Source: a virus. Taken from it: a stretch of 64,000 bases of DNA. The notes below the pieces were generated by a model that saw nothing but the letters and a program-made list of their open reading frames with translations, was not told the origin of the DNA and made no database searches. Location: positions 1 through 64,000 of the IMG/VR virus record IMGVR_UViG_3300031857_015617; one strand, given 5' to 3'. Positions 11,416-48,106 of the stretch are shown here, piece after piece. Both the position numbers and the translations under genes were made by a program. Within the stretch, counting starts at the first letter, position 1; every line of letters begins with the position of its first letter.

Positions 11416-11416
11416 T

Positions 11417-13156: not shown

Positions 13157-13178
13157 ATTTAATTTATACTTAATGTGT

Positions 13179-13210
13179 AACCCTTTTATCGTTTGATAAA
13201 GGGGTTTTTT
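13179..13210 (+). terminator. Strong rho-independent terminator
   Basis: An 11-bp stem (ACCCTTTTATC / GATAAAGGGGT, one G-U type pair) with a GTTT loop is followed by TTTTTATTTT. It closes the 10549-13156 operon and lies just before the promoter of the glycan island. Confidence 0.85.
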
Positions 13211-13224
13211 ATTTTAAAACAGAA

Positions 13225-13253
13225 TTGACTTGTTTCTCAATAAGGGTTATAAT
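13225..13253 (+). promoter_or_regulatory. Sigma70-like promoter TTGACT-N17-TATAAT
   Basis: TTGACT at 13225-13230 and TATAAT at 13248-13253 are separated by exactly 17 bases, 23 bases before the ATG at 13277. This is close to the classical bacterial consensus and unlike the TATTTAT motif before virion genes, so it probably drives early or middle expression of the glycan island. Confidence 0.7.
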
Positions 13254-13276
13254 TTAATGGTAAATTGTATAAAATT

Positions 13277-14491: not shown

Positions 14492-14494
14492 TTT

Positions 14495-17276: not shown

Positions 17277-17277
17277 T

Positions 17278-19539: not shown

Positions 19540-19636
19540 ATTAAATATGAATTTATCTGACGACACTGTTCCTATTAAGTAGGAAGACCACTTAAAAGAT
19601 TGTATAAAAAAGGTTTAAAATTTAATATTAAAGTAT

Positions 19637-20329: not shown

Positions 20330-20339
20330 TGGAGAAAGA

Positions 20340-21558: not shown

Positions 21559-21559
21559 T

Positions 21560-23606: not shown

Positions 23607-24591
23607 AAAAATTGCATTAATAACTGGGATTAACGGTCAAGACGGTTCATACTTGGCCGAATTTTTATTAGATAAAGATTACGAGGTTTGGGGTATTGTG
23701 AAAAGAAATTCAGTTTCTGAAACACAATCATTAAGAATTAATCATATTTTTGACAGAATTAATTTGGAGTACGCAGATCTTACCGATATGGCGTCATTAA
23801 TTAGGGTTTTACAAAAAGTCCAGCCAGATGAAATATATAATTTGGCGGCACAATCACACGTAAGGATTTCATTTGATCAACCAATCTATACGGCAAACGC
23901 AACCGGTCTTGGTGTTTTAAACTTACTTGAAGCAGTAAGGATGGTATCGTCGCATTCAAAAATATATCAAGCATCATCATCCGAAATGTTTGGTAATATG
24001 ATTGATGAGGACGGGTATCAAAGAGAAACAACTCCAATGAATCCTGTATCACCATATGGTTGTGCTAAAGTATTTTCATATAATATTTGTAGAAATTATA
24101 GAAATTCTTATGATATGAAAATATGGAATGGGATTTTATTTAATCACGAATCACCAAGACGAGGAACAAACTTTGTAACAAATAAAGTGGTTAAGGCTGC
24201 TGTCAGAATTAGTCTTGGTTTACAAAATGAATTACATTTAGGTAATCTTGACGCAACCAGAGATTGGGGTCACGCCAAGGATTATGTTAAGGCTATGTGG
24301 ATGATGTTACAAGCAGATAAACCTAATGATTATGTTTGTTCCACAGGTATTTCACATTCTGTTAAAGACCTCTGTGAATACACCTTTTCTAAATTGGGGT
24401 TGGATTTTAGAGATTATGTTATTATAGATGAAAAACATTTTAGACCTGAAGAATTATATAACTTAAAAGGTGACTCAACAAAATTAAGAAAAGACCTTAA
24501 TTGGGTTCCTGAATACACTTTTGAAACTATGTTAGATGAGATGATTGGATATTGGTTAGATTATTATGGAACCACAAAACCAAACTATTGA
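23599..24591 (+). CDS. gmd: GDP-mannose 4,6-dehydratase, 330 aa
   Basis: An extended SDR with NADP-binding GINGQDGSYL (residues 10-19), NLAAQSHVRISF, ASSSEMFG, YGCAK (Tyr153, Lys157), NHESPRRGTNFVTNKVV and LGNLDATRDWGHAKDYV, all standard for GMD. It turns GDP-D-mannose into GDP-4-keto-6-deoxymannose, the shared precursor of GDP-fucose, colitose, rhamnose and perosamine. Length is a little under typical GMD (about 345-370), with the core intact. It overlaps the ColD-like gene by eight bases. No GDP-mannose-making genes are in the window, so GDP-mannose is probably taken from the host. Confidence 0.93.
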   Translation: MGKKIALITGINGQDGSYLAEFLLDKDYEVWGIVKRNSVSETQSLRINHIFDRINLEYADLTDMASLIRVLQKVQPDEIYNLAAQSHVRISFDQPIYTANATGLGVLNLLEAVRMVSSHSKIYQASSSEMFGNMIDEDGYQRETTPMNPVSPYGCAKVFSYNICRNYRNSYDMKIWNGILFNHESPRRGTNFVTNKVVKAAVRISLGLQNELHLGNLDATRDWGHAKDYVKAMWMMLQADKPNDYVCSTGISHSVKDLCEYTFSKLGLDFRDYVIIDEKHFRPEELYNLKGDSTKLRKDLNWVPEYTFETMLDEMIGYWLDYYGTTKPNY

Positions 24592-24630
24592 GTATTTCCA
24601 AAACAATTATACTATTATAAGAAAATAAAT

Positions 24631-25368
24631 ATGACAAGAAAGAAAACCCCATTACCCACTGAAGAACAGGAGGTCAAACCATTTTCTAAAAAAGAGTTTA
24701 TCAACTCGGTAGTTAAGAGAAAACAAAAAAATAAATTTCTATCCCCAAACCAGGAAGAATATTATAATATCCTAAAACAAAGTGAAATAACTATTTGTTC
24801 AGGACCTGCCGGTGTTGGTAAATCTTTTATTGCAATGAAGGCCGCTGTTGATTTACTTATGGACCCAACGAATTCATATGAAAAAATAATCATTGTTCGT
24901 CCGGCAGTTGAGGCCGAAGAAAAACTTGGAGCCCTCCCTGGAAATCTTGAGGAAAAATTAGACCCTTATATTTTCCCATCTTACTACTTACTTAATAAAA
25001 TAATTGGTAAGGAAGCTAGAGAAAAATTAAAGGAGACCGAAATCATTGAGGTGTTTGCTCTTGCTTATATGAGGGGTATGAATATAGATAATTCAATTTT
25101 AATTTTTGAGGAAGCTCAAAACTCAACACCAAATCAAATGAAATTATTATTAACAAGAATTGGTTTTAATAGTAAATTCTTTATTTCTGGTGATCTTGAG
25201 CAGACAGATAGGTATAAAGATAAAAGACAATCTGGACTTTACGATGCTCTACAAAGATTTCAAAATGTAAGTAATATTGGGGTTTACGATTTTAAAAATG
25301 CGAAAAATGTAAGAAACCCATTAATTAGTAAAATTCTTGAGAAATACGATGAAGAGAATAGGAATTGA
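24631..25368 (+). CDS. phoH: PhoH-like P-loop ATPase, 245 aa
   Basis: Walker A GPAGVGKS is at residues 58-65 and Walker B ILIFEEAQN at about 155-163, with IVRPAVEAEEKLGALPGNLE and FFISGDLEQTDR (sensor) between and after. This is the PhoH family, a helicase-like ATPase that is very common in marine and T4-like phages. Its cellular task is unproven; RNA metabolism and phosphate-stress roles are proposed. The first 35 residues are a basic, probably disordered tail. It lies after a 39-base gap at the end of the sugar pathway and overlaps the next gene. Confidence 0.92.
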   Translation: MTRKKTPLPTEEQEVKPFSKKEFINSVVKRKQKNKFLSPNQEEYYNILKQSEITICSGPAGVGKSFIAMKAAVDLLMDPTNSYEKIIIVRPAVEAEEKLGALPGNLEEKLDPYIFPSYYLLNKIIGKEAREKLKETEIIEVFALAYMRGMNIDNSILIFEEAQNSTPNQMKLLLTRIGFNSKFFISGDLEQTDRYKDKRQSGLYDALQRFQNVSNIGVYDFKNAKNVRNPLISKILEKYDEENRN

Positions 25369-26011
25369 GATTAATGGTGTTTTAAGGGATACCATTTTAA
25401 AATTTACACAACTTTATGAAAAGTATTTAATTGAAAAGTCAGATGTTGTTAATAGAACATTTGAACTTTCTTTTTCTGGTGAGTCTAGTAACGAAGTTGA
25501 GACAACTGAAGAAGATGACTTTGTTTATGAAATAACAAGTGAGGTAGACTCTCTTGAACTTATGAGTCACTTTAAGTTTAAAAATTCAGAAGAACTTTTT
25601 TCATTTATGTACGAAGAATATACAATGGAACTTTTCGGTCACGCACCATCAAAAGAAATGAATTCATTTAATCTACTTAATGATTTTTATTACGATAACC
25701 GGGACGAGTTTAATATTTTAATTGTGTCAAATGAAATTGGTAAATCAAAACCGGCCTCACTTTTTTTCTTATCAAAATTTGGATGTCTTATTGAACAGGT
25801 ATTGTTTTATAGTGAAGTTACAAAAAATGCAATGTGGGATAGTGTGGACATTTTACTTACGGCAGACCCTTACCTATTATTAAACAAACCAGAAGACAAA
25901 CTGGTTATAAAATATAATACAGAATACAATAAACAAATTAGTTCGGAATATGAAATTAACTCACTATCTGAATTAAATCAAATTTTAAAAAATCTAAAAA
26001 GTTATGTTTAA
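25349..26011 (+). CDS. Degenerate HAD-like protein, 220 aa
   Basis: The ATG at 25349 (MKRIGIEINGVLRDTILKFT) is preferred to a TTG at 25337. The opening looks like the first strand of a HAD hydrolase, where D-x-D-G-V-x-R-D is usual, but both Asp positions read Glu7 and Asn9, so the catalytic nucleophile is missing. ILIVSNEIGKSKPASLFFLS resembles motif II with the downstream Lys, and VDILLTADPYLLLN resembles motif III/IV. It may be a binding protein derived from a phosphatase or 5'-nucleotidase. A long acidic insert separates the parts. It overlaps PhoH by 20 bases. Confidence 0.55.
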   Translation: MKRIGIEINGVLRDTILKFTQLYEKYLIEKSDVVNRTFELSFSGESSNEVETTEEDDFVYEITSEVDSLELMSHFKFKNSEELFSFMYEEYTMELFGHAPSKEMNSFNLLNDFYYDNRDEFNILIVSNEIGKSKPASLFFLSKFGCLIEQVLFYSEVTKNAMWDSVDILLTADPYLLLNKPEDKLVIKYNTEYNKQISSEYEINSLSELNQILKNLKSYV

Positions 26012-26258
26012 ATTATTTAATGAAATGTACTACATTGATTTAGACCAAATAGAATCTTGTGTTAACATTGAGGGTCAGTCTGGTGAATCACAAGTTCATA
26101 TTGTGAAATATGAAATTATTAAAGGCATGGTTGACACCCTACTTACTGAGGCTAACGAAGTTGATGAGAATCTTGGTATGAATAGTAATGAATTATCAAT
26201 ACCATTTAAAATAGCTTTTAACACACTTATGTTTAAGAAAATAATAAATAAAATATAA
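26004..26258 (+). CDS. Hypothetical small protein, 84 aa
   Basis: It begins MFKLFNEMYYIDLDQIESCV, then has a charged helix pair. The N-terminal strand pattern (YYIDLDQIESCVNIEGQSGE) could be a small beta hairpin, as in PH-like or SH3-like mini-domains. Overlaps the HAD-like gene by eight bases and lies six bases before a glycosyltransferase. No family recognised. Confidence 0.6.
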   Translation: MFKLFNEMYYIDLDQIESCVNIEGQSGESQVHIVKYEIIKGMVDTLLTEANEVDENLGMNSNELSIPFKIAFNTLMFKKIINKI

Positions 26259-26264
26259 ATTAGT

Positions 26265-27326
26265 ATGAACACAGAACAAATAAAAAAACTTGAGAAGTCC
26301 ATTCAAAGTATGAATGACAAACAATCTAGATTGTATTTTATTGTGCAGGATACCAAGGGTAACGCTAAAGCATCTTTAAGATACGTTTATCAAATGGCAA
26401 TGGTTTTAAAAGAAGACGGTTATAACCCAATTATTCTTCACGAAAACAAAGAATACATTGGTGTTGGTGAGTGGCTTGGTGAAAAATATATGTCAGAATT
26501 ACCGCATAAATCTATTGATGAAGGAAACCTTGAGATTTCACCGGACGACCTTTTAATTGTCCCTGAAATTTTTGGTTACATTATGGATCAGGTTAAAAAC
26601 CTTCCTTGTGGTAAAATTGTTCTCACACAAGCTTATGACCATATGTTTGAGACTTTACAACCTGGACAAACCTGGGAACAAATGAGTTTCTTTAAATGTA
26701 TTACAACGTCAAAAACACAAAAGGAACACATTGAAAAAGTAATGAGACGAGTCTCGTTTGAAATCATTTCACCAGTTATTAGTGATACGTTTGAAAAACC
26801 AGAGCTTCCACCAAAAACAATTATCTCCATTCACTCAAGAGATCAAAGAGATACTGCAAACATCATCAAACAATTCTATGTTAAGTTCCCACAATATAGA
26901 TGGATTACATTTAGGGATATGAGAGGTTTGACGGAAAAAGAATTTGCAAATAATCTAAAAGATAGTTTTCTTTCTGTATGGGTTGACCCAACAAGTGCGT
27001 TTGGGACGTACCCACTTGAGTCAATGAAAATGGGTATCCCAGTTATTGGTCAATTACCACATCTACAACCAGAATGGTTAAATGAAAATAATGGTATCTG
27101 GATTGCAAATAAAACTATTCTGGTTGATGTTGTTGCTGATTTTATTCAGAATTGGCTTGAGGATAATATTAACCCAGAACTTTATACTGAAATGGAAAAT
27201 ACTGTAAGTCAGTATAATGATTATGAAAAATTTAAAAATGAAGTCCTTTATGTATTCTCAGATATGATTGATACAAGAAGAAAATCATTTGAAGAGCAAT
27301 TAACTAAATTTGAAACAACTGAATAA
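26265..27326 (+). CDS. GT-B type glycosyltransferase, 353 aa
   Basis: After a 20-residue helical start, the N-terminal Rossmann half has LYFIVQDTKGNAKASLRYVY, VLKEDGYNPIILHENKEY and DDLLIVPEIFGYIMD. The C-terminal half has TIISIHSRDQRDTANIIKQF, then LSVWVDPTSAFGTYPLESMK and MGIPVIGQLP. The F-G-x-x-P-L-E-S-M-x-x-G-x-P-V-I block is the nucleotide-sugar site of GT4-like enzymes, with Glu in the expected place. It pairs with a GT2 gene that starts one base later. Outside the main glycan island but in the same transcription direction. Confidence 0.75.
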   Translation: MNTEQIKKLEKSIQSMNDKQSRLYFIVQDTKGNAKASLRYVYQMAMVLKEDGYNPIILHENKEYIGVGEWLGEKYMSELPHKSIDEGNLEISPDDLLIVPEIFGYIMDQVKNLPCGKIVLTQAYDHMFETLQPGQTWEQMSFFKCITTSKTQKEHIEKVMRRVSFEIISPVISDTFEKPELPPKTIISIHSRDQRDTANIIKQFYVKFPQYRWITFRDMRGLTEKEFANNLKDSFLSVWVDPTSAFGTYPLESMKMGIPVIGQLPHLQPEWLNENNGIWIANKTILVDVVADFIQNWLEDNINPELYTEMENTVSQYNDYEKFKNEVLYVFSDMIDTRRKSFEEQLTKFETTE

Positions 27327-27327
27327 T

Positions 27328-28134
27328 ATGGAAAATAAAAACACTATCTCGGTAATACTACCTATCAAATCAGCAAGAGCTGTTGACTTTGATGAATTTT
27401 TTGGAAAATGTATCACATCTATTAAAAATCAAGACGGACTTGTAGATGAAGTTGTCATTGTTCACACTAGTGAGGATAAACTTAAAGAACATCTTAATTC
27501 ATTTGATTTTGGAGACCTTAATGTTGTTTTAAGGGAATACGAAGGGAAACCAAGTTTTGCTGGACAAGTAAATGCTGGTGTTGACGAAGCGTCATCGGAA
27601 TGGGTGTCTGTTTTGGAGTTTGACGATGAGTATTCAAACGTGTGGTTTAAAAATGTAAAAAGTTATATGACTTACTACCCAGAAATTGATGCGTTTATGC
27701 CAATTGTTGTTGATGTTGATGATAAAGGTGTGTTTGTTGGTTTTACAAATGAAGCAACGTTTGCTGCAAACTTCACAAATGAAATGGGAAGATTAGATCA
27801 CGACACATTACTTACTTACCAAAACTTCCAGTTCTCTGGTCTTGTAATGAGAAAAAGTTCATATACAAAATATGGCATGGTTAAGGAATCATTTAAATTA
27901 ACATTTGGTTATGAATTCTTTTTAAGAATGACAAGTAATGATGTTAAATTCTTAACAATACCTAAAATTGGTTACAAACATATGAATTTGAGAGAAGGAT
28001 CTATTTTCTGGAACTATAAAAATGGTGAGGATAAAATGGTTGAGGACGAAGTTAGATTTTGGATTGATTTGGCTAAGAAAGAATATCTATTTATTAAGGA
28101 TAGAGAGATAAAGTATGAACCACAAGAAGTTTAA
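27328..28134 (+). CDS. GT2-like glycosyltransferase, 268 aa
   Basis: The ATG at 27328 is used; an upstream TTG at 27310 would overlap the previous gene and add only six residues. The GT-A fold shows as TISVILPIKSARAVDFDEFF, VDEVVIVHTSEDKLKE, FAGQVNAGVDEASSEWVSVL and EFDDEYSNVWFKN, with FDDE as the metal site. FSGLVMRKSSYTKYGMVKES is the acceptor-side region. Its last base is the first base of the next ATG. Probable partner of the preceding GT-B enzyme. Confidence 0.75.
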   Translation: MENKNTISVILPIKSARAVDFDEFFGKCITSIKNQDGLVDEVVIVHTSEDKLKEHLNSFDFGDLNVVLREYEGKPSFAGQVNAGVDEASSEWVSVLEFDDEYSNVWFKNVKSYMTYYPEIDAFMPIVVDVDDKGVFVGFTNEATFAANFTNEMGRLDHDTLLTYQNFQFSGLVMRKSSYTKYGMVKESFKLTFGYEFFLRMTSNDVKFLTIPKIGYKHMNLREGSIFWNYKNGEDKMVEDEVRFWIDLAKKEYLFIKDREIKYEPQEV

Positions 28135-28886
28135 TGCTGGTTGATGAAAATGTAAATTTAACAGAAGAATTAAAGAAAAAGAAAGGGAGAAAACCAAAAA
28201 CAACAGCGTATTTCGCAGAAAGAGAGGAAGAGGCAGTTAGAAATTATCTAACTGCTGAAACTTTTGATGAGAAAAACAAAATTTACAATCAGTTTTTAAG
28301 AGACCCTTTAGATAAAATGATATCTTCAATTATTAGAAGATACAAATTATACAGAAAAGATATGAATTTTGATGAGATTCATATTGACACACATTCTTTT
28401 TTGATGACAAAAATTGATAAATTTAAACCATCAAAAGAAAAAAAGGCCTATTCATATTTTGGAACAATATGTAAAAATTATCTGATGGGTCAAATAATGA
28501 AGGATCAAAAGGAAACAAATCGTAAAATACCATACGAAGATATTTCCTCAAATCTAGAACACACACCAGATATGATTTATTATATTGACAATGAAGAAAT
28601 ATCAACGGATGAAATTATTAAAAAGTTTTTATCAAAGTTAAAAGATGTTTTAGAAAATAACGAAAAAATAACTTCAGAAGAAACAAAGTTAGGTCAAGCG
28701 ATACACGATTTATTTGAAAATTACGGTTTAACCTTTCCTGAATCTGGGAATAATAAATTTAATAAAAATGTGATTCTCTTTGAATTGAGAGAGATGACAA
28801 ACCTATCAACTAAAGAAATTAGAAATTCTATGAAGAAGTTCAAAAAACTTTACTTAGAAATATTACAAGATATTTTAAAAGATTAA
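28134..28886 (+). CDS. Candidate gp55-like late-transcription sigma factor, 250 aa
   Basis: The segment DEIHIDTHSFLMTKIDKFKP followed by AYSYFGTICKNYLMGQIMKD and then a basic patch resembles sigma region 2 as kept in T4 gp55 (N-x-F-A-Y-F-T-T-I-x-x-N-A-F pattern). A C-terminal helical part (ELREMTNLSTKEIRNSMKKF) could act as a region-4-like or clamp-binding element. gp55-type factors bind host RNA polymerase and the sliding clamp to read late promoters. It is the last gene before virion genes of the plus-strand run. The TATTTAT motif may be its target. Sequence similarity to gp55 is low, so this is a reasoned but uncertain call. Confidence 0.6.
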   Translation: MLVDENVNLTEELKKKKGRKPKTTAYFAEREEEAVRNYLTAETFDEKNKIYNQFLRDPLDKMISSIIRRYKLYRKDMNFDEIHIDTHSFLMTKIDKFKPSKEKKAYSYFGTICKNYLMGQIMKDQKETNRKIPYEDISSNLEHTPDMIYYIDNEEISTDEIIKKFLSKLKDVLENNEKITSEETKLGQAIHDLFENYGLTFPESGNNKFNKNVILFELREMTNLSTKEIRNSMKKFKKLYLEILQDILKD

Positions 28887-35585: not shown

Positions 35586-36011
35586 ATGAAAAAAAGAATT
35601 AAAAGATTTTTTAAAAGAATAAAATTAAGATTTTATTTATGGTCAAAAAAAAGAGACATTATACCTTCGTATGAGGAAAATAAAACACCATATGAAAAAA
35701 CTTGTTTTTTAATTTGTCTTAAAGCAATCAAAGATAAAAATACAAAATTTATGATTGCCCCCGTCTCAAACAAGAGGTATATTGAAAATAAAGATATGGA
35801 TATCTTTATCACTTTAGATGAAGGGACTGTTGATTTAACAAATCACATTTATCATTATAATGTAAAGTTAACCAATAGGGATTGGGAAAGAATTACGTAT
35901 GTGTTTGATTTAGAAGCTGAGAAAAGAAGATTAGAATATGAAGAAAAAATTAATTCTCAGATAAAAAATTCTTTACACGATGTCTTAAAAAGAATTTCTG
36001 ATTTCAGATAG
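35586..36011 (+). CDS. Hypothetical basic protein, 141 aa
   Basis: The protein opens with a very basic stretch (MKKRIKRFFKRIKLRFYLWS) and then a small alpha/beta domain (CFLICLKAIKDKNTKFMIAP; DIFITLDEGTVDLTNHIYHY) with a charged helical tail. The basic N terminus could bind nucleic acid or membrane. The 3' end overlaps the 3' end of the converging minus-strand gene by 27 bases. No family recognised. Confidence 0.6.
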   Translation: MKKRIKRFFKRIKLRFYLWSKKRDIIPSYEENKTPYEKTCFLICLKAIKDKNTKFMIAPVSNKRYIENKDMDIFITLDEGTVDLTNHIYHYNVKLTNRDWERITYVFDLEAEKRRLEYEEKINSQIKNSLHDVLKRISDFR

Positions 36012-36695
36012 AACCCTATTAACAATATAATCAACAGATTCATTCTTTGGTTTGTATGAAACCATAACTGGTTTTTGTCCTTTACCGGTTTGAGTATCTT
36101 TTTTTTCCGCTCTTCTTTTTTGTTGACAAGCAGATTTTTTTTCCGAATCAGACATTTTACCCGCAACACCGGCCGCTCTACATTTAGGGTATGAACCTTC
36201 ACTAGCATCAGATCTTCCGCAAGGTGGGTGTTTACCATTAACCTTTCTACATATATCAACCCAAGGACCCTTTGGTTGTGAAGAACCTTTTGGTTTTTTC
36301 TTTTTACCAAACCATACAGCAAGGTCTTCTTCTAATTCATTTGATTCTTTAATCGGGACTATTTTTTTTCCTTTGCCCGGTGTTGGGTTTAGATTATTTC
36401 CGTCTTCATCACTAAATGTTGAATTTGGGTGTTTTTTAATATAGTTTGTTGCTTTCTCAGCTTGACGTTCAATTTCCTTTCTTTGTTTTGGTTTTATATC
36501 CATTTTCCCATCAAAACTATCATATTGTAATAAAGGACTATCATAATGTGAAACCTCATCTGTAAAAGGACCTAAAGCCGTTTTATCAAAGTTTCTTAAT
36601 CCTGGTTGTAATGGTATAATATAAGACCCTCTTGAACCAGTGTTATTACCGGTTGCTTCTTTTAATATTTTCTTTATTATTTCTCTTACATCCAT
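35985..36695 (-). CDS. DUF5872-like Cys/Lys-rich protein with LKE-type N terminus, 236 aa
   Basis: The N terminus MDVREIIKKILKEATGNNTG is an amphipathic helix ending L-K-E. Residues of about 120-200 carry DLAVWFGKKKKPKGSSQPKG, PWVDICRKVNGKHPPCGRSD and YPKCRAAGVAGKMSDSEKKS, the pattern of DUF5872, a basic, four-Cys-type domain common in giant viruses and phages and possibly zinc-binding. The C terminus NESVDYIVNRVLSEIRNSF is again an amphipathic helix. It could be an internal head protein or DNA-associated protein. It overlaps the 141-residue gene by 27 bases at the 3' ends. Confidence 0.7.
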   Translation of the reverse strand: MDVREIIKKILKEATGNNTGSRGSYIIPLQPGLRNFDKTALGPFTDEVSHYDSPLLQYDSFDGKMDIKPKQRKEIERQAEKATNYIKKHPNSTFSDEDGNNLNPTPGKGKKIVPIKESNELEEDLAVWFGKKKKPKGSSQPKGPWVDICRKVNGKHPPCGRSDASEGSYPKCRAAGVAGKMSDSEKKSACQQKRRAEKKDTQTGKGQKPVMVSYKPKNESVDYIVNRVLSEIRNSF

Positions 36696-36710: not shown

Positions 36711-36929
36711 ATGGAAGATGAAAAAAAAGAGTTGTACGGAAATCTATTTGGGACTATTGACATCCTATCAGAAGATCATTTAAATATTATGTTAACAACA
36801 ATGGATAAGGATAGTTCCCTATATTTTATTGTGGAGTCTTTGAAAGCCGCACACAAACGTGGTGCTTTCACAATTGGTGAAACGGAAGTAATATCAAAGG
36901 CTATCCGGGTGATTTCTAGTATGGATTGA
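36711..36929 (+). CDS. Hypothetical small protein, 72 aa
   Basis: MEDEKKELYGNLFGTIDILS opens a compact helical protein with LKAAHKRGAFTIGETEVISK in the middle. A lone plus-strand gene between two minus-strand ones; its end overlaps the converging membrane-protein gene by 36 bases. No family recognised, but the codon use and A-rich start look like the neighbours. Confidence 0.55.
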   Translation: MEDEKKELYGNLFGTIDILSEDHLNIMLTTMDKDSSLYFIVESLKAAHKRGAFTIGETEVISKAIRVISSMD

Positions 36930-37373
36930 TTTAGTATATAACATTACGTGTACGTGATAAAAACAAAGAACAATAATTGCCCAAGTTTCCATCCAGTATA
37001 ATCCATCAAAAGTTAAAAAAATTGTGGACAAAAGATATACCGGTAAGTATAGTCTAAATCTCTTTATTGACCACAAAGGAAACACACACACAATAAAAAA
37101 ACCGACAGCAAGTACATTATGAATTGTGACATAATCCTCAACTGAAAAAACGGTTAAAAGTAAAAGAAGTACTGCTGGTATTCGCCAATGAGGTAAATCA
37201 AAAAAGAAATAACTTACAAGTGCGTTTGTAAAAATAAAAAGTGGTTGTAATGGTGTGTTCCAAGATTGTGAAAGTGAAATTAAGTCTCCACAAGTAAAAT
37301 AAATAATAAAAGGTTGTAATACTGCGATTAATGCGGTAAACAACCTTTTATATAGTTCAAAATTACTTATCAT
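36894..37373 (-). CDS. Multi-pass inner-membrane protein, 159 aa
   Basis: About five or six hydrophobic helices cover most of the chain: LFTALIAVLQPFIIYFTCGD, PLFIFTNALVSYFFF, WRIPAVLLLLLTVFSV, NVLAVGFFIVCVFPLW, LYLPVYLLSTIFLTF and MYWMETWAIIVLCFYHV-like. There is no recognised family, no signal peptide and no catalytic motif. The ATG overlaps the stop of the upstream exported-protein gene (ATGA), so the two are probably translated together. It could be an immunity-, holin- or transport-type helper for the exported module; holins usually have fewer helices and a charged tail. The 3' end overlaps the converging 72-residue gene. Confidence 0.65.
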   Translation of the reverse strand: MISNFELYKRLFTALIAVLQPFIIYFTCGDLISLSQSWNTPLQPLFIFTNALVSYFFFDLPHWRIPAVLLLLLTVFSVEDYVTIHNVLAVGFFIVCVFPLWSIKRFRLYLPVYLLSTIFLTFDGLYWMETWAIIVLCFYHVHVMLYTKSIHTRNHPDSL

Positions 37374-38758
37374 CTAATAACCTTTCTCATTGTCCCATCA
37401 TCATATATTTCTACATAAACATCAGAAATTTTAAGTTTTTCAGGATCAATTTCCTGACCATTTAAATTAACATATTTAATTATAGTTTTTTTACTTTCTA
37501 AATCTATATTATTTATAGTTATTGGTCCAAATGTGTCATAAACACCATTTAAATCATATTGTTGTAATCTATAATAGTTTATGTTTGGGTCAACTTTAAA
37601 ATCAACAACATCGTAGGTTATTTCTTGTGTTGAATTTCCTGCTGCGTTTAGTGTTGCGATAGTAGTCCATATTTCACCATCTCTACTTTTTTGTAGGTTA
37701 AAGTGGCTTGTATTTTGTTCAGATACAGTTGACCAAAATAAATAATTATTTGGACCTTTATTCACACCATTAAAAGTTGATAATTCAACAGGTAATGGGT
37801 TTGGATCTGAAAGTGCTATTTTTATATTTGGTCTAAGACTAGATTGTACACCATTTGACGTGGGATATGACGCATCTTGGTGACTATACCCTACCGTATT
37901 AGTTTTTGATGTGTAATAAAACCAAGGTTCGTCAAAAGTATATGTACCATTTCTATTTTCCCATTTTATAAGTAAGTTATTTGTGTTATTCCAAGGAAAT
38001 GGTGTTTGTAGTGCAATTTCGTTCCACCCAATATTCCAAGTAACACTACCATCATAAACCAATGTATAGTTAGATGATACATAATTTGTTTGTGCGTTTT
38101 CACTAACCGGTGAGGGTAATACTGATAGTGTTGTGTGACCCATATATATTTTTTGGTTTGTTGCGGTATAAGGACCTGGTGTGGTTGGGTCTACTTGGAA
38201 ACGTATTTTTGTAATGTTTCCTTCTGTATTAATTTCCGACTGTAAATAAATTATTTCAGACCACCCATATTTGTAGTAATGATTGGCGGGTGCGTTATAA
38301 ACAACACCTTCACCACTACCTATACTTACTATGGTACTTCCTGCCGTACTACCTTTTTGATACTTAACTATTGCACTAGCGTTTATGGTGTTACATGTAC
38401 TTGAGGCAGACCAACGAGTTAAAAGTATTGAATAATTACCTGAAGTAGTACAATACCATGTTATTTCTGATTGTGTATTAAAATAATCATCACTCCACGC
38501 TAAAACTGAACCTCCAGTTGCTGTAGAATATAAACGAAGATATGTATCTACCGTAGTTTGACCTACAGTAGAAAAGGTGTATTCATTACCCGCTTCAGCA
38601 TAAAAATTAAACGCTCTACGACCAGCGGCATAAGCTGGCGTATATTGTAAGGTTGTTGTTGGAGTAATTGTCTCATTTGTTGTTGCGGTATTACAATACT
38701 GTGACAATCCTGAAAAAGTCATTAATAAAGTAAAAATAAATAATATTAAATTTTTCAT
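37370..38758 (-). CDS. Exported protein with PPC-like domain and T9SS type-A-like tail, 462 aa
   Basis: I place the start at 38758, 16 codons inside the longest frame, because MKNLILFIFTLLMTFSGLSQ is a typical Bacteroidota signal peptide ending S-Q. Next comes a beta-sandwich like the bacterial pre-peptidase C-terminal domain (VDTYLRLYSTATGGSVLAWS), then a second beta domain (WSEIIYLQSEINTEGNITKI). Residues of about 335 on show the common Bacteroidota pre-sorting block PLPVELSTFNG, LFWSTVSEQNTSHFNLQKSR and NYYRLQQYDLNGV. The last 40 residues (YVNLNGQEIDPEKLKISD, VYVEIYDDGTMRKVIR) look like a short T9SS type A sorting tail. It is therefore probably secreted through host Sec and T9SS. Coupled to the membrane protein. 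Confidence 0.8.
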   Translation of the reverse strand: MKNLILFIFTLLMTFSGLSQYCNTATTNETITPTTTLQYTPAYAAGRRAFNFYAEAGNEYTFSTVGQTTVDTYLRLYSTATGGSVLAWSDDYFNTQSEITWYCTTSGNYSILLTRWSASSTCNTINASAIVKYQKGSTAGSTIVSIGSGEGVVYNAPANHYYKYGWSEIIYLQSEINTEGNITKIRFQVDPTTPGPYTATNQKIYMGHTTLSVLPSPVSENAQTNYVSSNYTLVYDGSVTWNIGWNEIALQTPFPWNNTNNLLIKWENRNGTYTFDEPWFYYTSKTNTVGYSHQDASYPTSNGVQSSLRPNIKIALSDPNPLPVELSTFNGVNKGPNNYLFWSTVSEQNTSHFNLQKSRDGEIWTTIATLNAAGNSTQEITYDVVDFKVDPNINYYRLQQYDLNGVYDTFGPITINNIDLESKKTIIKYVNLNGQEIDPEKLKISDVYVEIYDDGTMRKVIR

Positions 38759-38776
38759 AACTACGTTTTTATTATT

Positions 38777-38783
38777 ATAAATA
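38777..38783 (-). promoter_or_regulatory. TATTTAT candidate late promoter
   Basis: The coding strand reads TTGATATTTATAATAATAA, 18 bases before the ATG at 38758; supports the internal start chosen for that gene. Confidence 0.45.
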
Positions 38784-38825
38784 TCAAAAATAAATGTTAT
38801 AATCAAGTTTTTTGATGTTATTTGT

Positions 38826-39203
38826 TTATACTACCACTTTTAAGTCGGTAAAACTAAGTTCTATATTATCAGAAACAACAAATTCAAATAAATTATTTGA
38901 CAATATCTCCAAATCTTTACCTAATTCAAGTAGGTCTTCGTCAGATTCCTCATAAAACCAAATAACATTATTTTGTTTAAGATTGATTAACTTAATTAAG
39001 TGGAGTATAGAATTGGTGTTAATGTGATTTAATTTTACCATAATTGTTTTTATCTCATATTTTTTAATTTGGTTTATTATTAATGACCAAAATAATTCTG
39101 GTTCAAACAATATTGATTTACCCTCAATACTCAAAGTATTGTTGTTATGATTAAAAACAACTTTTGGTGTTGTATTAGTTTTTTCTGATAGTGTTGTTCT
39201 CAT
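38826..39203 (-). CDS. SiaC-like (DUF1987) regulatory phosphoprotein, 125 aa
   Basis: The order VVFNHNNNTLSIEGKSILFE, MVKLNHINTNSILHLIKLIN and VIWFYEESDEDLLELGKDLE matches SiaC/DUF1987: a strand with G-R/K-S, an N-T-x-S site, and W-x-Y/E-x-x-D-E-D-x-x-E-x-G. In Pseudomonas SiaC, the Thr of this site is phosphorylated by SiaB and dephosphorylated by SiaA, and the free form activates the diguanylate cyclase SiaD. Here it would be Thr63. Full length for the family (about 120-130). Overlaps the 107-residue gene by four bases. Phage copies are, to my knowledge, not described. Similarity is by eye. Confidence 0.65.
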   Translation of the reverse strand: MRTTLSEKTNTTPKVVFNHNNNTLSIEGKSILFEPELFWSLIINQIKKYEIKTIMVKLNHINTNSILHLIKLINLKQNNVIWFYEESDEDLLELGKDLEILSNNLFEFVVSDNIELSFTDLKVVV

Positions 39204-39523
39204 TTTTTTATTTTTATTTCATAACCAAAAAAGGCCGTTAATATTTCTTCTTCATCCTCTTTAACTAAATCATCTTCACAAAGATTTAATATTTCAGACA
39301 GAGTTGTTTTGTCTTTTATTTCATCAGTTACTTTTTGTTTAAACCTCTGAACCCCCCTAATCATTTCTAAAGTTTCTTCAATATCACTTATGGATTTTAT
39401 ATTTTTATCGTTAGAACTTTTATTTATCTCATCTAATAGGTCCCGTATAACTTCCCAACAATGGTCATCCACCATATTTATAACCCTAATTTTAGCCTCT
39501 TCAAGAATAAGTTCTATTTTCAT
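39200..39523 (-). CDS. Hypothetical helical protein, 107 aa
   Basis: MKIELILEEAKIRVINMVDD opens an all-helical acidic protein (WEVIRDLLDEINKSSNDKNI; LEMIRGVQRFKQKVTDEIKD) with an acidic C-terminal third. ATGA overlap with the SiaC-like gene and a five-base gap after the subtilase make it part of the exported-protein operon. It might be the partner of the SiaC-like protein, but it has no kinase or phosphatase motif. Family not recognised. Confidence 0.6.
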   Translation of the reverse strand: MKIELILEEAKIRVINMVDDHCWEVIRDLLDEINKSSNDKNIKSISDIEETLEMIRGVQRFKQKVTDEIKDKTTLSEILNLCEDDLVKEDEEEILTAFFGYEIKIKK

Positions 39524-39528
39524 TTTTT

Positions 39529-41514
39529 TTAACTTTTATATATTCTTTTTATTACCCCACCCTCAACCATAAAGTAAAAACCAACGGGGGCATTATCAAA
39601 TCTAATTTGTTTTCCGTTCATATCTAAAACAATTTCTGGATTTAATTTTTCATTAGTGTTTATTATTTCTCCTATATTTAATATTTCTTCTGTTAAATTA
39701 GATAAAATTACATTCTCAGAGGACATACATCCATTATCATCTGTAACTAATACCTCATAAAAATCCGATACCACACTATTTAAATCCTCACTAATTTCAC
39801 CATGATTCCATTGATAGTTATACGGTTTAGTACCACCAACCACATCTAAATCAATTGATCCAAAGGTATTTTGAGTTGGTTGTACGTAATTTAAACTTGT
39901 AACAAGTAGTTCGGGTTCGTTAATTGTAAAATCTTCCATTACAACACACCCTGATTGGTCTGTTACATTTACCTGATAGTACCCAGGTTTTAAATTTGTC
40001 ATAGTACTTAATGTGTTACCATTTGACCATTCATAAGTTAAAGTAGAATCACCACCTTGTGTTGAAACACTTATCCCACCATTTTCAAAACCATAACACG
40101 TTACATGATTAATTTCGGATTGTGTTGTTATTTCACTGTAAGATTCAATTTCTCTTTCTGAGTAAAATTTACAACCTTTAACATCTTTAACTTCTATACT
40201 ATAAAAACCAGTAGAATCTACTTCTATTTTATCATTAGTACTACCATTAGACCATTCAAAAGATAAAGGAACTTGACCTGTAATGTTGTTAAATTTTGCC
40301 TGTCTTTTTGAATCAACACAATTAACATCAGTTATTAGTTCACCCTCAATCGTATTGAATTTTTTTGCCATTAAAACAGCTTTATAAGAATCTAATTTAC
40401 CTGAACCTAACATACCAATATAGTTTTGGTTAACTTCATAAATTGAGCTATCAGCAGTTTCTTTAAGAATATACTCAATTTGATCGGGAGTTAAACAAGG
40501 ATTAACAGATAACATCAAAGCTACGGTTCCTGAAACAAGTGGTGTGGCGAAAGAAGAACCATTTCCTGTAACATATTGACCCGGTGATGTTGACAACACT
40601 ATGTCGTATCCAGGAGCCGAAATATCTACTTTATTATTGTGTTGGTGTGTTGAATTTGGGTTGCCGATGAATCTTTCGTGATTGTTGTTCGGTCCAACAG
40701 ATGTAACTGAAATTACGTGTTCGTATGATGCAGGATAAACTTCGTTTACTGACCCACCACAAGTACTTCCGTTACCAGCGGCTGCTATTATAACAGAACC
40801 GTTGTTATGAACCTCATTTATAACTTGTTGTGCGTAATAGTTAAAATAACAACTAGAAGCCCAACTAGCGTTTATTACTCTTGCTCCTGAATAAGTTGCT
40901 TCAAGTAATTCATTATAATCCATAACTCTTAGTTGTAACTTTGAATTGTAACCAATTGAACTTTTACCGGCGAAATTATTTGTGTTACCTGCAGCTGTTA
41001 TAGCTACCGCGGTACCATGAGTATAATCAGTACTATAGTTGTCAATTGTTCTATAAGTAATTTTACCACCAAGATCTTCGTGATTGTGGTAATAGTTTGC
41101 ATCTGTAATAGCAATAACTACTGAAGTATCTCCGTGTGTGATATCCCAAGCTTGTTCAGCGTTTATTGAATTAAGTGCGTAATCGTACATAAAAACTGAG
41201 ATGTCGTTTGGGGTGTCAAGAGTTTTATATTCAGGACCTAATTCAGGTTTAACAAAATTATTATTTTTAGAAGTTCTTACTAGTAATTCATTAACATCAC
41301 AATTACAATTTATTTGATAAACTTGTTGTAATTCAGAATTATGTGATGATGGAAACGCCTTTTTTATTTCTGTAATACTAAGGTCTGAGATTGAATTTAA
41401 AACCTCAGTTCTTTTTGATTCATAATTTGGGATTTTTACCCATACGTTGTCCTGAGATAAGACACTAATTGTTGTTGTTAAAATTGTTAAAATTGTTACT
41501 ATTAAATTTTTCAT
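39529..41514 (-). CDS. Secreted subtilisin-like (S8) protease with SprB-like repeats and T9SS-like tail, 661 aa
   Basis: The start at 41514 is chosen because MKNLIVTILTILTTTISVLS, then Q, is a signal peptide; the longest frame begins 13 codons earlier. The S8 triad is intact: Asp138 in AITDANYYHNHED, His166 in YTHGTAVAITAAGN and Ser321 in GNGSSFATPLVSGTVALML, with oxyanion Asn248 in IAAAGNGS. Residues 25-115 may be a propeptide. Residues of about 405-600 carry three Ig-like repeats of the SprB/HYR kind (TLTYEWSNGNTLSTMTNLKP, then GYYQVNVTDQSGC). The last 50 residues (EIVLDMNGKQIRF, PVGFYFMVEGGVIKRIYKS) look like a T9SS type A sorting domain. It would be exported by the host to the cell surface or medium. 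Confidence 0.85.
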   Translation of the reverse strand: MKNLIVTILTILTTTISVLSQDNVWVKIPNYESKRTEVLNSISDLSITEIKKAFPSSHNSELQQVYQINCNCDVNELLVRTSKNNNFVKPELGPEYKTLDTPNDISVFMYDYALNSINAEQAWDITHGDTSVVIAITDANYYHNHEDLGGKITYRTIDNYSTDYTHGTAVAITAAGNTNNFAGKSSIGYNSKLQLRVMDYNELLEATYSGARVINASWASSCYFNYYAQQVINEVHNNGSVIIAAAGNGSTCGGSVNEVYPASYEHVISVTSVGPNNNHERFIGNPNSTHQHNNKVDISAPGYDIVLSTSPGQYVTGNGSSFATPLVSGTVALMLSVNPCLTPDQIEYILKETADSSIYEVNQNYIGMLGSGKLDSYKAVLMAKKFNTIEGELITDVNCVDSKRQAKFNNITGQVPLSFEWSNGSTNDKIEVDSTGFYSIEVKDVKGCKFYSEREIESYSEITTQSEINHVTCYGFENGGISVSTQGGDSTLTYEWSNGNTLSTMTNLKPGYYQVNVTDQSGCVVMEDFTINEPELLVTSLNYVQPTQNTFGSIDLDVVGGTKPYNYQWNHGEISEDLNSVVSDFYEVLVTDDNGCMSSENVILSNLTEEILNIGEIINTNEKLNPEIVLDMNGKQIRFDNAPVGFYFMVEGGVIKRIYKS

Positions 41515-41685
41515 AATGTGTATATTTTTTATTGTATACACATAGTTAGTCATATAATGGTATAAAGTCCTTTTGTGGGGGGTATAGTATTTTTAAATTA
41601 AGGGGTACGCTCTATAGTAGTATAAGTACTACATACGAATGGTTAGGTAAAAATACTTAAATGGGGTAAAATTTTGTATGATAGT
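41515..41685 (-). promoter_or_regulatory. Control region upstream of the subtilase gene with two inverted repeats
   Basis: The 171-base gap has no TATTTAT motif. A perfect 7-bp inverted repeat (GTGTATA/TATACAC, 10-base loop) spans 41518-41541, only three bases before the ATG, and a 6-bp one (GTAGTA/TACTAC, 4-base loop) spans 41617-41632. Either could be an operator or an RNA hairpin that controls protease expression. A G-run (GGGGGG) at about 41576 lies between them. Confidence 0.4.
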
Positions 41686-42687
41686 TTATTTCATAGTTTT
41701 TTCTATAAAACCATCATCATATATAAGTAAATATATTTCACCTTCTTTCATATTTAACACCGCTTGTCCCATTAAATTTGTGATTTTTATAAGTATTCTA
41801 TTCTTATGTTCTTTAATGTAGATAATACTAAGATTTTCAAATTTACCATCATAATCTGTTTGTCTTAAAATAAAATATCCAGAACCAATCGTATTTCTAA
41901 TTGAATATTTATGTTTACCTTCAGATGGTACATTATATTTTGGTTCAAAATTATACCCATCCATTGAGTGTAATATTGTGTAATAGTCATTATTATATTC
42001 TGAATATATGTCCCACCATAAACTATCTCTATCTCCTTCAAAAGAGATTAAACTTACCGGTAATGGGGTTGTCATTTGCCACAATTCAAAATTATCTAAC
42101 CACCATTCTTCACCTACGGAATTAACTCTAACATAAACTCTTGCGGTAAATTGTGTTACGTTTGTAAATTTTAAACGTATATCAGAATAAGTTCCGTTTT
42201 GTGCTGAATATGTTGTGAGTGTCCCGCTTGCTGTTTTTTGTATTAATGTTGTGTTGTAATTCCATAACGCATTATCATAACCATTAATTTTTATCTCTTG
42301 AACCAAAGTAGTATTATCGGTACTAATATAAAGTAATACGTAATCGGCAATATCAACACCAGCACTTAAAGATGACGATGAACCAAATTTATAAGACCCT
42401 AATCTAAATCTAAATTCATACTCAAATCCTTGGTCTAATCCTGTGATATTTGGTAAAACATAGACCCCTTCTTCAATGTTTGACGTTCCATTACCGGTAC
42501 CGATTAAAGCTGCTGATGATGTACTACTAACAAACGCGTTGGCGTAATAACCGGTATTATTTCCATACCCAACTGACCATCCGCCTAACCAATTGAATGA
42601 TTCAATATAGTCGTATTTTATTAAAGTTTGTGAAAATAAAAATGGTGGGAAAAAAACTATTAAAAAAAATAAAAAAAACTTTTTCAT
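41686..42687 (-). CDS. Exported lectin-like protein with T9SS type-A-like tail, 333 aa
   Basis: MKKFFLFFLIVFFPPFLFSQ is a signal peptide ending S-Q. Residues of about 25-205 form a jelly-roll/concanavalin-like domain (ESFNWLGGWSVGYGNNTGYY; GFEYEFRFRLGSYKFG; WWLDNFELWQM), similar in style to MAM or carbohydrate-binding domains of secreted Bacteroidota proteins. Then PLPVSLISFEGDRDSLWWDI, YTILHSMDGYNFEP and YFILRQTDYDGKF give the usual pre-sorting block, and ILIKITNLMGQAVL with IYLLIYDDGFIEKTMK the short sorting tail. It probably sits on the host surface and binds glycans. It lies downstream of the capsid terminator as its own unit. Confidence 0.78.
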   Translation of the reverse strand: MKKFFLFFLIVFFPPFLFSQTLIKYDYIESFNWLGGWSVGYGNNTGYYANAFVSSTSSAALIGTGNGTSNIEEGVYVLPNITGLDQGFEYEFRFRLGSYKFGSSSSLSAGVDIADYVLLYISTDNTTLVQEIKINGYDNALWNYNTTLIQKTASGTLTTYSAQNGTYSDIRLKFTNVTQFTARVYVRVNSVGEEWWLDNFELWQMTTPLPVSLISFEGDRDSLWWDIYSEYNNDYYTILHSMDGYNFEPKYNVPSEGKHKYSIRNTIGSGYFILRQTDYDGKFENLSIIYIKEHKNRILIKITNLMGQAVLNMKEGEIYLLIYDDGFIEKTMK

Positions 42688-42694
42688 ATTAACA

Positions 42695-42701
42695 ATAAAT
42701 A
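42695..42701 (-). promoter_or_regulatory. TATTTAT candidate late promoter
   Basis: The coding strand reads TCTATTTATTGTTAATATG, seven bases before the ATG at 42687. Confidence 0.4.
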
Positions 42702-42782
42702 GATAAAAAGGTTAAAGAATGTAATGATTTATTTAATTATTAACAATAACTTATCATATATGATATTTTATTTAACAAAATA

Positions 42783-42831: not shown

Positions 42832-44688
42832 TTATCTCAATTCTCTTAAATCAAATGTACGAACTCCATCAACAGTGATACGAGCGTAGAAACGGTTGTT
42901 AACCATTTTCTTAGCGTATCTTGTCATAATACCTTTGATAGGTGTGAAGTTGAATGGGTTGTACATTGTAGGTGTTAACTGAAGAGGTACGTATGGTGCG
43001 TAGATGTATCCAGTGTCTAACAATGATGTTCCTTTGTGACCCAACAAGATTGTGTTTGGTGGGAAGTAAGGATCACGATAAACTTGGTAACGTCCAGCAA
43101 GAGTACCAACTCTTTCAATACCCATATTGTATTGGTCTTGCTCAGGAGACGCGTTAGATACGTGGAAGTATTCTAAATCGTCAAAGATAGCTGAAACTTC
43201 AGAAGAAACAACAATCCAGTTAGCACCACCTCTAAGTGTAGACTTGTGGATTTGTGCAGACAACTGGTTGATTGCTGTAATCAACGTTTGGTTCCAGTCT
43301 TTCTGTGTGTAAGAAGTAGTCAAAGACAATCTTCTCCATCCATTGTAATCCCAACGTAGGTTCCATGCAGCACCTTTACGAAGGTCTCTTAGGATTTCAC
43401 GGTCAATTTCCGCAGCAACTTGTTCTGAAAGAAGAGCAGTAAGCTCAGCTTCAGCATCAATGTTATGGAATGCCGCAACGTCTTGAGCAAGCTCTGGAGA
43501 CCATTGTGCTCTTAATTTTCTTTCAGTAACTGATACTGTAACAGACTCAAGGTCAAAAGAAACCTCTCCGATTTTTTCTTCAAACTCTAGTTCTTCGTAA
43601 CGTCTCCAAACAGCAGTAAATGATGTTGCAGATGTGATAGCAGAAAGAGTAGAACCAGTGTACCCATCAAGTGAAGTGTCACCACAAGATGCACAAGCAG
43701 GACAAGAAAGATCTACTTCAAGAATGATACAACCATTAGCGTTACAGATATTGTTAAAAGAACCACCATTTCCATCAACTGGGAATGTAGTTTGATATTG
43801 ACTACCATAGTCAACAATTCCTTTACCATATTTTTGAGTTACAACTCTAAATAAAAGTGGTGATGCACCAACTGTAGGAACTGGACATACGTTAGCAGCA
43901 TCAAATCCTAATCCTGTATTAGTAAGGATTTTAAGGTCAGAAAGGAAAGATTCTGTATCAATTTCATTTCCGTCAGGTCCGATAAGTTTACCAGCACCTG
44001 GGATGTTACTCCACCCACAAAGTTTGATAAGAACTTTTCTTGTGTTACCAACATAAGCAGCGTCGTCATTGTTAGCATCAACTAAGTCACCATTTGACCA
44101 TTTTACAACAGTAGCCGCTGCCGTGATAGCAGAAAAACGACCTTTAGAATAATCAAATAGACCAGCAGGATCCAATCCTGGCTCAGCTCCTTCGTAGAAT
44201 AAATCATAAAGATTTTTTGAGAAAGGTGCGTTAGCGTTAGGTGCTGTATCAGCTCCTGGGTAACCTTGACCCGGTACGTTATAACCACCATTAACCGCTT
44301 CAGGAGAACCAATTGGTGGATAGTGAACACTACCAGCTTCATTTGGGTTATATCCTTGGATACGAGGTACAAAGTAGAACAATTTACCAATTGGTAAGTT
44401 CATAGCTTGTACTGATACGATATCGTTAGCTAACAATTTAGAGAAAACTCTTCTAACGATAGGGAAAACAACCGTTTCAAAAGCTCCGTTTGAACCTTCT
44501 GAAGTTGCTTCGTTAATTAGGTGAGATGCTTGGTTCTCATATAACTGAGCCACGTTCTCTTTTAGATGACCTTTAAGTCCATCAAGGAATCCTAATTTAT
44601 CCCATTTGTTAATTGTATCTTCTTTGATAACTTTAAGGTGCTTAAGACCGATGTTACCAACAAGACCAGATTCTAATAATGCTCCCAT
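42832..44688 (-). CDS. Major capsid protein (T4 gp23-like), 618 aa
   Basis: The N-terminal part has LYENQASHLINEATSEGSNG and the gp23 signature FPIVRRVFSKLLANDIVSVQ followed by MNLPIGKLFYFVPR. Further on, EFEEKIGEVSFDLESVTVSV, then ERKLRAQWSPELAQDVAAFH and the long C terminus (NRFYARITVDGVRTFDLREL) are typical of gp23-family HK97-fold capsid proteins. About 65 N-terminal residues may be removed by the prohead protease. Residues 130-380 hold large inserted loops with Cys pairs (CPACASCGDT) that could be a surface decoration domain. Longer than T4 gp23 (521). Followed by a strong terminator, preceded by a TATTTAT motif. Confidence 0.93.
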   Translation of the reverse strand: MGALLESGLVGNIGLKHLKVIKEDTINKWDKLGFLDGLKGHLKENVAQLYENQASHLINEATSEGSNGAFETVVFPIVRRVFSKLLANDIVSVQAMNLPIGKLFYFVPRIQGYNPNEAGSVHYPPIGSPEAVNGGYNVPGQGYPGADTAPNANAPFSKNLYDLFYEGAEPGLDPAGLFDYSKGRFSAITAAATVVKWSNGDLVDANNDDAAYVGNTRKVLIKLCGWSNIPGAGKLIGPDGNEIDTESFLSDLKILTNTGLGFDAANVCPVPTVGASPLLFRVVTQKYGKGIVDYGSQYQTTFPVDGNGGSFNNICNANGCIILEVDLSCPACASCGDTSLDGYTGSTLSAITSATSFTAVWRRYEELEFEEKIGEVSFDLESVTVSVTERKLRAQWSPELAQDVAAFHNIDAEAELTALLSEQVAAEIDREILRDLRKGAAWNLRWDYNGWRRLSLTTSYTQKDWNQTLITAINQLSAQIHKSTLRGGANWIVVSSEVSAIFDDLEYFHVSNASPEQDQYNMGIERVGTLAGRYQVYRDPYFPPNTILLGHKGTSLLDTGYIYAPYVPLQLTPTMYNPFNFTPIKGIMTRYAKKMVNNRFYARITVDGVRTFDLRELR

Positions 44689-47911: not shown

Positions 47912-48106
47912 ATGTTAAAAGTAGAAGTTAAAAGAGGTGATATAGAAAGGGCGTTAAAAGAACTTAAAAGTAAGGTGATTAAAACAAGACAAAATTCCCA
48001 CCTAAATGATAGACGGGAATTTAAGAAAAAATCTGTTGTAAAACGTAGCCAGGTTAAAAAAGCAATCTATATTCAGAAACTAAAAATTACTCCTAAAGAT
48101 TTGTAA
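47912..48106 (+). CDS. rpsU: Phage-encoded ribosomal protein bS21, 64 aa
   Basis: MLKVEVKRGDIERALKELKS then KVIKTRQNSHLNDRREFKKK and SVVKRSQVKKAIYIQKLK follows bS21 from end to end: short N-terminal strand, E-x-A-L-x-x-x-K helix, R-R-E-F/Y-x-K-K-S turn and basic C-terminal helix. Length is normal for bS21 (58-70). It binds the 30S subunit near the mRNA exit channel and anti-Shine-Dalgarno. It is the only plus-strand gene in the head block; TATAAT at 47898-47903 lies nine bases before the ATG. The 3' end overlaps the converging 239-residue gene by 14 bases. Confidence 0.88.
   Translation: MLKVEVKRGDIERALKELKSKVIKTRQNSHLNDRREFKKKSVVKRSQVKKAIYIQKLKITPKDL

What the first reader, a model, noticed from the sequence alone, without database searches (positions are those of the whole stretch)
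36894..42687. Phage module of three exported proteins with T9SS-like sorting tails
Three genes (37370-38758, 39529-41514, 41686-42687) each begin with a Bacteroidota-type signal peptide ending Ser-Gln and end with a short tail of the T9SS type A kind (x-x-G-x-x-I/V, then Y/F-x-x-x-x-x-x-G-x-x-x-K). Two also carry the PLPV pre-sorting block common in secreted Bacteroidota proteins. They lie inside a T4-like phage genome, next to capsid genes. This suggests that the phage uses the host's type IX secretion to place proteins on or outside the infected cell. Possible aims are receptor removal, superinfection exclusion, matrix digestion or release of progeny. I know of no described phage system of this kind.
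Basis: partly seen in the sequence, partly recalled or inferred. Interest (0 to 1): 0.92.

Follow-up and report, generated by a model that had tools for sequence, protein, structure and literature searches.

The report
Phage proteins exported by host T9SS
A large virus of freshwater Bacteroidota carries, right behind its main shell gene, several genes whose proteins bear both shipping labels (an export signal and a type IX secretion tail) needed to be sent by the bacterium's own machinery to the cell surface; hundreds of related viral contigs carry such tails, so the virus probably remodels the surface of the cell it infects.

Summary
Three genes inside a T4-like phage (gp23 capsid, gp20 portal) encode proteins with Bacteroidota "Q-rule" signal peptides and short C-terminal tails. 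No curated T9SS model fires on these three tails themselves. A profile built only from tails of other phages hits two of them (4e-16, 1e-5; third 0.26). The 53%-identical orthologue of the third, at the same locus in a 229-kb relative, carries a full TIGR04183/PF18962 sorting domain above cut-off. The short tail keeps the two motifs that P. gingivalis mutagenesis found essential and also ends secreted proteins of Crocinitomicaceae and other Flavobacteriales with SprA.

In viral contigs, 80 of 81 untruncated tail ORFs have a signal peptide. Tail genes occupy a variable slot between the capsid gene and a conserved gene in 15 of 48 capsid-matched relatives, with a shared promoter-like motif and often an overlapping small membrane-protein gene. 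A cultured T4-like Flavobacterium phage (immuto) also encodes a T9SS-tailed protein.

The claim that no such phage system is described is wrong: de Jonge 2019 and Bellas 2020 reported phage-encoded T9SS cargo. New here are the T4-like/bS21 lineage, the short tail, the capsid-linked slot and the membrane partner. The benefit to the phage is inferred, not shown.

The parts
41686..42687 (-). P0003: Q-rule signal peptide, MAM-like/jelly-roll domain, PLPV FN3-like module, short T9SS-type tail; first gene downstream of gp23
   Evidence: tail E 1.2e-5; 10 phage relatives, 34-43% id; model pLDDT 70; weak MAM-Ig/FN3 matches
39529..41514 (-). P0002: Q-rule signal peptide, subtilase (D138/H166/S321 invariant in 4 aligned phage proteins), SprB-type repeats, shortened type A tail
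   Evidence: PF00082 8e-30; PF13573 1e-9; orthologue in L083 with TIGR04183 40.6 bits and PF18962 43.9 bits
37370..38758 (-). P0001: Q-rule signal peptide, two beta-rich domains, PLPV module, short T9SS-type tail
   Evidence: tail E 3.8e-16; 60-67% id in 4 phages
36894..37373 (-). TM159: 159-aa polytopic membrane protein overlapping the P0001 stop by 4 nt; conserved partner of tail genes
   Evidence: 29 of 46 distinct ORFs upstream of TM159 homologues carry the tail
38826..39203 (-). SiaC-family (PF09345) gene inside the cluster; found only in this phage and near-identical contigs among the loci held
   Evidence: (2.8e-14)
39200..39523 (-). 107-aa ORF of unknown function overlapping the SiaC gene; found only in this phage and near-identical contigs
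42832..44688 (-). gp23-like major capsid protein; upstream border of the variable slot
   Evidence: PF07068 4.5e-73
35985..36695 (-). conserved 236-aa protein; downstream border of the slot in relatives
42695..42701 (-). TATTTAT promoter-like motif upstream of P0003
38777..38783 (-). TATTTAT promoter-like motif upstream of P0001
44721..44727 (-). TATTTAT promoter-like motif upstream of gp23
47912..48106 (+). bS21 gene on the opposite strand within the capsid/portal block; marks the freshwater Bacteroidetes bS21 phage group
   Evidence: PF01165 30.2 bits, cut-off 27; PMC9723584

Best explanation
The cluster is a swappable slot of phage-encoded cargo for the host's type IX secretion system. The proteins are made from genes beside the capsid gene, probably late; they leave the cytoplasm through Sec, signal peptidase I cuts before Gln, and the C-terminal tail (a shortened type A CTD keeping the L-beta3-beta4 'N-x-x-G' motif and the terminal basic strand) is read by the host T9SS translocon, which moves them to the cell surface or medium. 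The payloads are binding domains (MAM/FN3/GEVED/CUB-like, SprB repeats) and a subtilisin-like protease; the most likely use is to remodel or mask the infected cell's surface so that other phages, or the phage's own progeny, do not adsorb there. Shown by computation: signal peptides, tail homology, catalytic residues, synteny, shared motif. Inferred: actual export, timing, surface anchoring and benefit. The confidence given is for the T9SS-cargo identity; for the masking/exclusion benefit alone it is about 0.35.
For: Q-rule signal peptides: 80 of 81 untruncated tail ORFs have a signal peptide, 79 with Q placed as expected. The P0002 orthologue L083:12015-14063 (53% id, same slot) has TIGR04183 and PF18962 above cut-off, and so does its neighbour. 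Short-tail versus canonical type A profile: P 2.4e-4, collinear; reversed controls 0.2-0.4. The same short tail ends Flavobacteriales proteins, and all 10 module-bearing genomes tested have SprA. Retained motifs match those shown essential in RgpB/PorU, and the HBP35 signal maps to the last 22 residues (PMC11285876). Slot between gp23 and a conserved gene, 15 of 48 capsid-selected loci with a tail; 304 module-encoding stretches in IMG/VR. TATTTAT upstream of 23/36 tail genes (3.2 expected) and 23/72 capsid genes (0.6 expected). Cultured phage immuto, host Flavobacterium sp. LMO8, has a PF18962-tailed secreted protein. bS21 in the window links it to phages predicted to infect lake Bacteroidetes.
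Against: No curated T9SS model passes on the three tails themselves. hhalign probability is only 43% for the short tail. All short-tail genomes seen are SprA-positive, but so is most of the sample (286 of 295, 229 of 297), so this is weakly informative. The host is not established and its T9SS not seen. T9SS CTDs can be species-incompatible (PMC11285876). About two thirds of capsid-matched relatives have no detected tail gene, so it is accessory.
Confidence: 0.8

Rival explanations
1. Virion decoration: the proteins are head or tail adhesins (Hoc-like, Ig/FN3 and jelly-roll) made beside the capsid gene; the hydrophobic start is cut by the prohead protease and the tail is a docking peptide.
For: First gene after gp23 in many relatives; FN3/MAM/GEVED/CUB-like domains; PMC10367356 notes capsid proteins with predicted signal peptides probably cut by prohead proteases.
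Against: Near-universal Q-rule signal peptides, curated T9SS CTDs in orthologues, the same tail on chromosomal secreted proteins of Flavobacteriales, and a subtilase payload. The fold search with P0003 gave extracellular-type domains, no virion fibre.
Confidence: 0.08
2. Host-benefit or foraging cargo: the proteins are T9SS-exported but serve to add a surface protease and adhesins that help the infected (perhaps pseudolysogenic) cell feed or attach.
For: Payload resembles ordinary Bacteroidota surface enzymes; Bellas 2020 proposed additional enzymatic capabilities for Cryophage cargo.
Against: Same promoter-like motif as the capsid gene suggests late, lytic expression; no integrase or lysogeny gene was noticed in the genes scanned, but this was not searched systematically.
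Confidence: 0.2
3. Release aid: the T9SS-exported protease and binding proteins open surface layers or matrix, or clear receptors from debris, at the time of lysis.
For: Late-type location; subtilases in this slot in at least five phages, one (L113) only distantly related.
Against: Most cargo has no recognisable enzyme domain.
Confidence: 0.25
4. Passive passengers: host genes captured by recombination, with tails of no use to the phage.
For: Slot is mosaic and also holds HNH nucleases and unrelated genes.
Against: Tail kept at the exact C-terminus behind unrelated N-terminal domains; intact catalytic triad; conserved overlapping membrane-protein gene.
Confidence: 0.05

Closest known systems
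Cryophage T9SS type A cargo genes (Bellas et al. 2020, PMC7468147)
   Same: Bacteroidetes phage encoding three variable proteins with T9SS type A sorting domains; hijack of host T9SS proposed
   Different: 76-kb circular phage; cargo are an endoglucanase, a GH39 and a PA14 protein; the passages read do not mention a capsid-linked slot, short tail or membrane partner
crAss-like cluster 2 T9SS sorting-domain proteins (de Jonge et al. 2019, PMC6949934)
   Same: Phage T9SS sorting-domain ORFs close to the head genes
   Different: crAss-like gut phages with BACON repeats; not T4-like; function left open
TIGR04183/PF18962 type A CTD
   Same: Motif around x-x-x-G-x-x-V and basic C-terminal strand; collinear profile match; orthologue of P0002 has the full domain
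   Different: Window tails lack the YPNP first strand and are shorter; below curated cut-offs
bS21-encoding freshwater Bacteroidetes phages (PMC9723584)
   Same: gp23/portal/prohead protease block with bS21 on the opposite strand
   Different: A text search of that paper found no mention of secretion or sorting domains
P. gingivalis phage Q-rule genes (PMC10367356)
   Same: Phage proteins with Bacteroidetes-type signal peptides
   Different: Prophages; a text search of that paper found no mention of T9SS or type IX

Membership tests
T9SS type A cargo | N-terminal Sec signal peptide | tested here: met
   80 of 81 untruncated tail ORFs; 79 of the 80 with Q at the expected place; the three window proteins by direct reading. 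Hydropathy rule used, not SignalP
T9SS type A cargo | C-terminal sorting domain above curated TIGR04183/PF18962 cut-off | tested here: not met
   None of the three window proteins; met by the P0002 orthologue in L083 and its neighbour
T9SS type A cargo | Homology of the tail to the type A CTD incl. L-beta3-beta4 glycine and C-terminal basic strand | tested here: met
   hhalign P 2.4e-4 against reversed controls 0.2-0.4; invariant G in 22 of 22; orthologous alignment. Probability value only 43%
T9SS type A cargo | Host possesses a T9SS | not testable with these tools
   Host unknown; bacteria with the nearest tails have SprA
T9SS type A cargo | Outer-membrane export dependent on T9SS | not tested
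   Needs experiment
T4-like phage (gp23/gp20/TerL) | gp23, gp20, T4-type terminase, prohead protease | tested here: met
   PF07068, PF07230, PF03237; PF03420
bS21 freshwater Bacteroidetes phages | bS21 on the reverse strand inside the structural block | tested here: met
   PF01165 30.2 bits at 47912-48106(+)
S8 subtilase (P0002) | Catalytic Asp/His/Ser | tested here: met
   D138, H166, S321 invariant in the 4 aligned proteins; PF00082 8e-30
Virion decoration protein | No export signal; virion-type fold or present in particles | tested here: inconclusive
   Export signals present; extracellular-type folds only, modest model; no proteomics

The most novel reading that the evidence does not exclude
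T4-like phages of aquatic Bacteroidota carry a dedicated, capsid-coupled cargo slot: a swappable host-T9SS substrate with a phage/Flavobacteriales short tail, often translationally coupled to a small phage membrane protein (TM159) that helps or gates its export, used to coat or strip the surface of the infected cell late in infection.
Probability: 0.35. Interest if true: 0.82.

Novelty: new variant of a known kind. Interest (0 to 1): 0.66.

Why it matters
As far as the papers searched here show, delivery of phage proteins to the outside of a living infected cell through the host's type IX machine has never been demonstrated; two papers noted candidate genes in uncultured phages. This work finds the trait in a widespread T4-like lineage, ties it to a fixed genomic slot beside the capsid gene, and points to a cultured phage (immuto on Flavobacterium sp. 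LMO8) in which it can be tested. If true, it gives a new route for superinfection control and surface remodelling in Bacteroidota, and the short tail would define a minimal T9SS signal.

Tried and rejected
TIGR04183 on the window record: no hit; the weak 10.4-bit hit in P0002 is not in the tail. Correlation of the short tail with SprA: not discriminating because nearly all sampled genomes have SprA. Sequence searches of P0001 and P0003 families against solved structures: nothing convincing. The P0001 model is poor (pLDDT 55) and was not searched further. TM159: no Pfam match above cut-off, no PHROG match, no match in solved structures, and none in 198 genomes of the class, the last without a positive control; no match in named phages. 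Distant TM159 homologues occur in other phage contexts without a tail gene, so the link is strong but not exclusive. The genes directly downstream of gp23 in immuto are not tailed; its PF18962 gene lies elsewhere. Bacterial contamination was rejected: tail genes flank gp23 in dozens of phage contigs.

Full report
What is there. The window is part of an 80.7-kb virus record. It holds a gp23-type capsid gene, gp20 portal, T4-type terminase and prohead protease and, on the opposite strand between protease and portal, a bS21 gene (PF01165, 30.2 bits). That layout matches the freshwater bS21 phages of PMC9723584, whose authors predicted Bacteroidetes hosts, with one spacer match to Flavobacterium. 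Directly downstream of gp23 lie P0003, P0002, two small genes (one SiaC-like), P0001 and TM159.

Export signals. All three proteins start with a typical signal peptide followed by Gln. Over the viral loci collected, 92 distinct tail ORFs were found; 81 are not cut by a contig start; 80 of these have a signal peptide and 79 of the 80 show Q at the expected place (background 17.6%). In an earlier subset the contrast was 38 of 42 tail ORFs against 11 of 599 other long ORFs. The predictor was a hydropathy rule written here, not SignalP.

The tails. None of the three passes TIGR04183. A profile made from tails of other phages, without the window and its near-identical contigs, hits P0001 (3.8e-16) and P0003 (1.2e-5); P0002 is weak (0.26). 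Three lines tie these tails to T9SS. First, the P0002 orthologue in L083 (229-kb phage whose capsid protein is 79% identical; same slot) has full TIGR04183 and PF18962 domains above cut-off, as does the next gene; the alignment shows the P0002 tail as a shortened form of that domain. Second, 98 short tails (60 of them bacterial) align collinearly with 55 canonical type A tails from Bacteroidota loci (P 2.4e-4; reversed controls 0.2-0.4; HH probability only 43%). Third, the same short tail ends chromosomal proteins of Flavobacteriales, including Brumimicrobium, Crocinitomix and Fluviicola, up to six per genome; 21 of 31 bacterial tail ORFs in fetched stretches show a signal peptide, most of the rest being cut or short. 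The ten module-bearing genomes tested have SprA, but SprA is present in most sampled genomes, so that correlation is weak. The retained motifs correspond to L-beta3-beta4 and the C-terminus, both needed in P. gingivalis, where the HBP35 signal was mapped to the last 22 residues (PMC11285876).

The slot. In 48 relatives chosen only by capsid similarity and holding both borders, the stretch between gp23 and a conserved downstream gene varies from about 0.2 to 8 kb; 15 carry a tail gene, 11 an HNH nuclease, 6 TM159. N-terminal parts are mosaic: P0003-like, P0001-like, GEVED/FN3/CUB-type and subtilases. A TATTTAT motif lies within 60 nt upstream of 23 of 36 tail genes (3.2 expected) and 23 of 72 capsid genes (0.6 expected). 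It also precedes the first gene of the glycan cluster, so calling it a late promoter is an inference.

TM159. A 159-aa membrane protein overlaps the P0001 stop codon by four bases. Searching IMG/VR with this family alone, 29 of 46 distinct upstream ORFs carry the tail, mostly with the same overlap. Other homologues sit in unrelated contexts. Its role is unknown; a helper or immunity role is speculation.

Breadth. The module is encoded in 304 stretches of IMG/VR, and 27 of 45 whole records hold a short tail while 5 hold PF18962 (these records were partly chosen for having tails). Among the five is the cultured T4-like Flavobacterium phage immuto, whose gp015 (annotated as cohesin-domain protein) has a signal peptide and PF18962.

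How it likely works. Sec export, cleavage before Gln, recognition of the tail by the host translocon, and surface display or release. P0002 keeps the subtilase triad; P0003 models as a MAM-like jelly roll plus FN3-like domain, with modest confidence. A surface-remodelling or masking role is the best guess; release aid and host-benefit cargo are live rivals that share the same export route.

Prior work. Phage-encoded T9SS cargo was reported in Cryophage (PMC7468147) and noted in crAss-like phages (PMC6949934). This finding is therefore a new variant of a known kind. The paper library holds only open-licence PMC papers, so further prior work may exist.

Noticed in passing
window 38826-39203 (-): A SiaC-family (PF09345) regulatory phosphoprotein gene inside a phage secretion cluster; known SiaC acts in biofilm/c-di-GMP signalling. 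Found only in this phage and near-identical contigs among the loci held.
   Followed up: partly
window 10549-28886 (+): Large glycan cluster: several glycosyltransferases, GDP-mannose 4,6-dehydratase, aminotransferase; may alter host surface glycan or glycosylate exported proteins.
   Followed up: partly
window 36894-37373 and L240-L319: TM159, an uncharacterised phage membrane-protein family with at least 86 viral copies, often overlapping a tail gene but also found alone in other phages.
   Followed up: partly
L018:10415-10869; L033:5128-5630: TM159 split over two overlapping frames in two phages: sequencing error, decay or programmed frameshift.
   Followed up: no
L239 28-2923 (NC_055915.1 10527-13422): Cultured Flavobacterium phage immuto encodes three adjacent signal-peptide proteins (C-type lectin, unknown, cohesin plus PF18962 tail).
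   Followed up: partly
L113:9979-12318: A divergent subtilase with a signal peptide and a different DGT-type tail in the same slot, apparently an independent acquisition.
   Followed up: partly
LR745206.1 (record W03) 42667-42771, 298450-298626: A 635-kb uncultured huge phage also carries a short tail and a full PF18962 tail.
   Followed up: no
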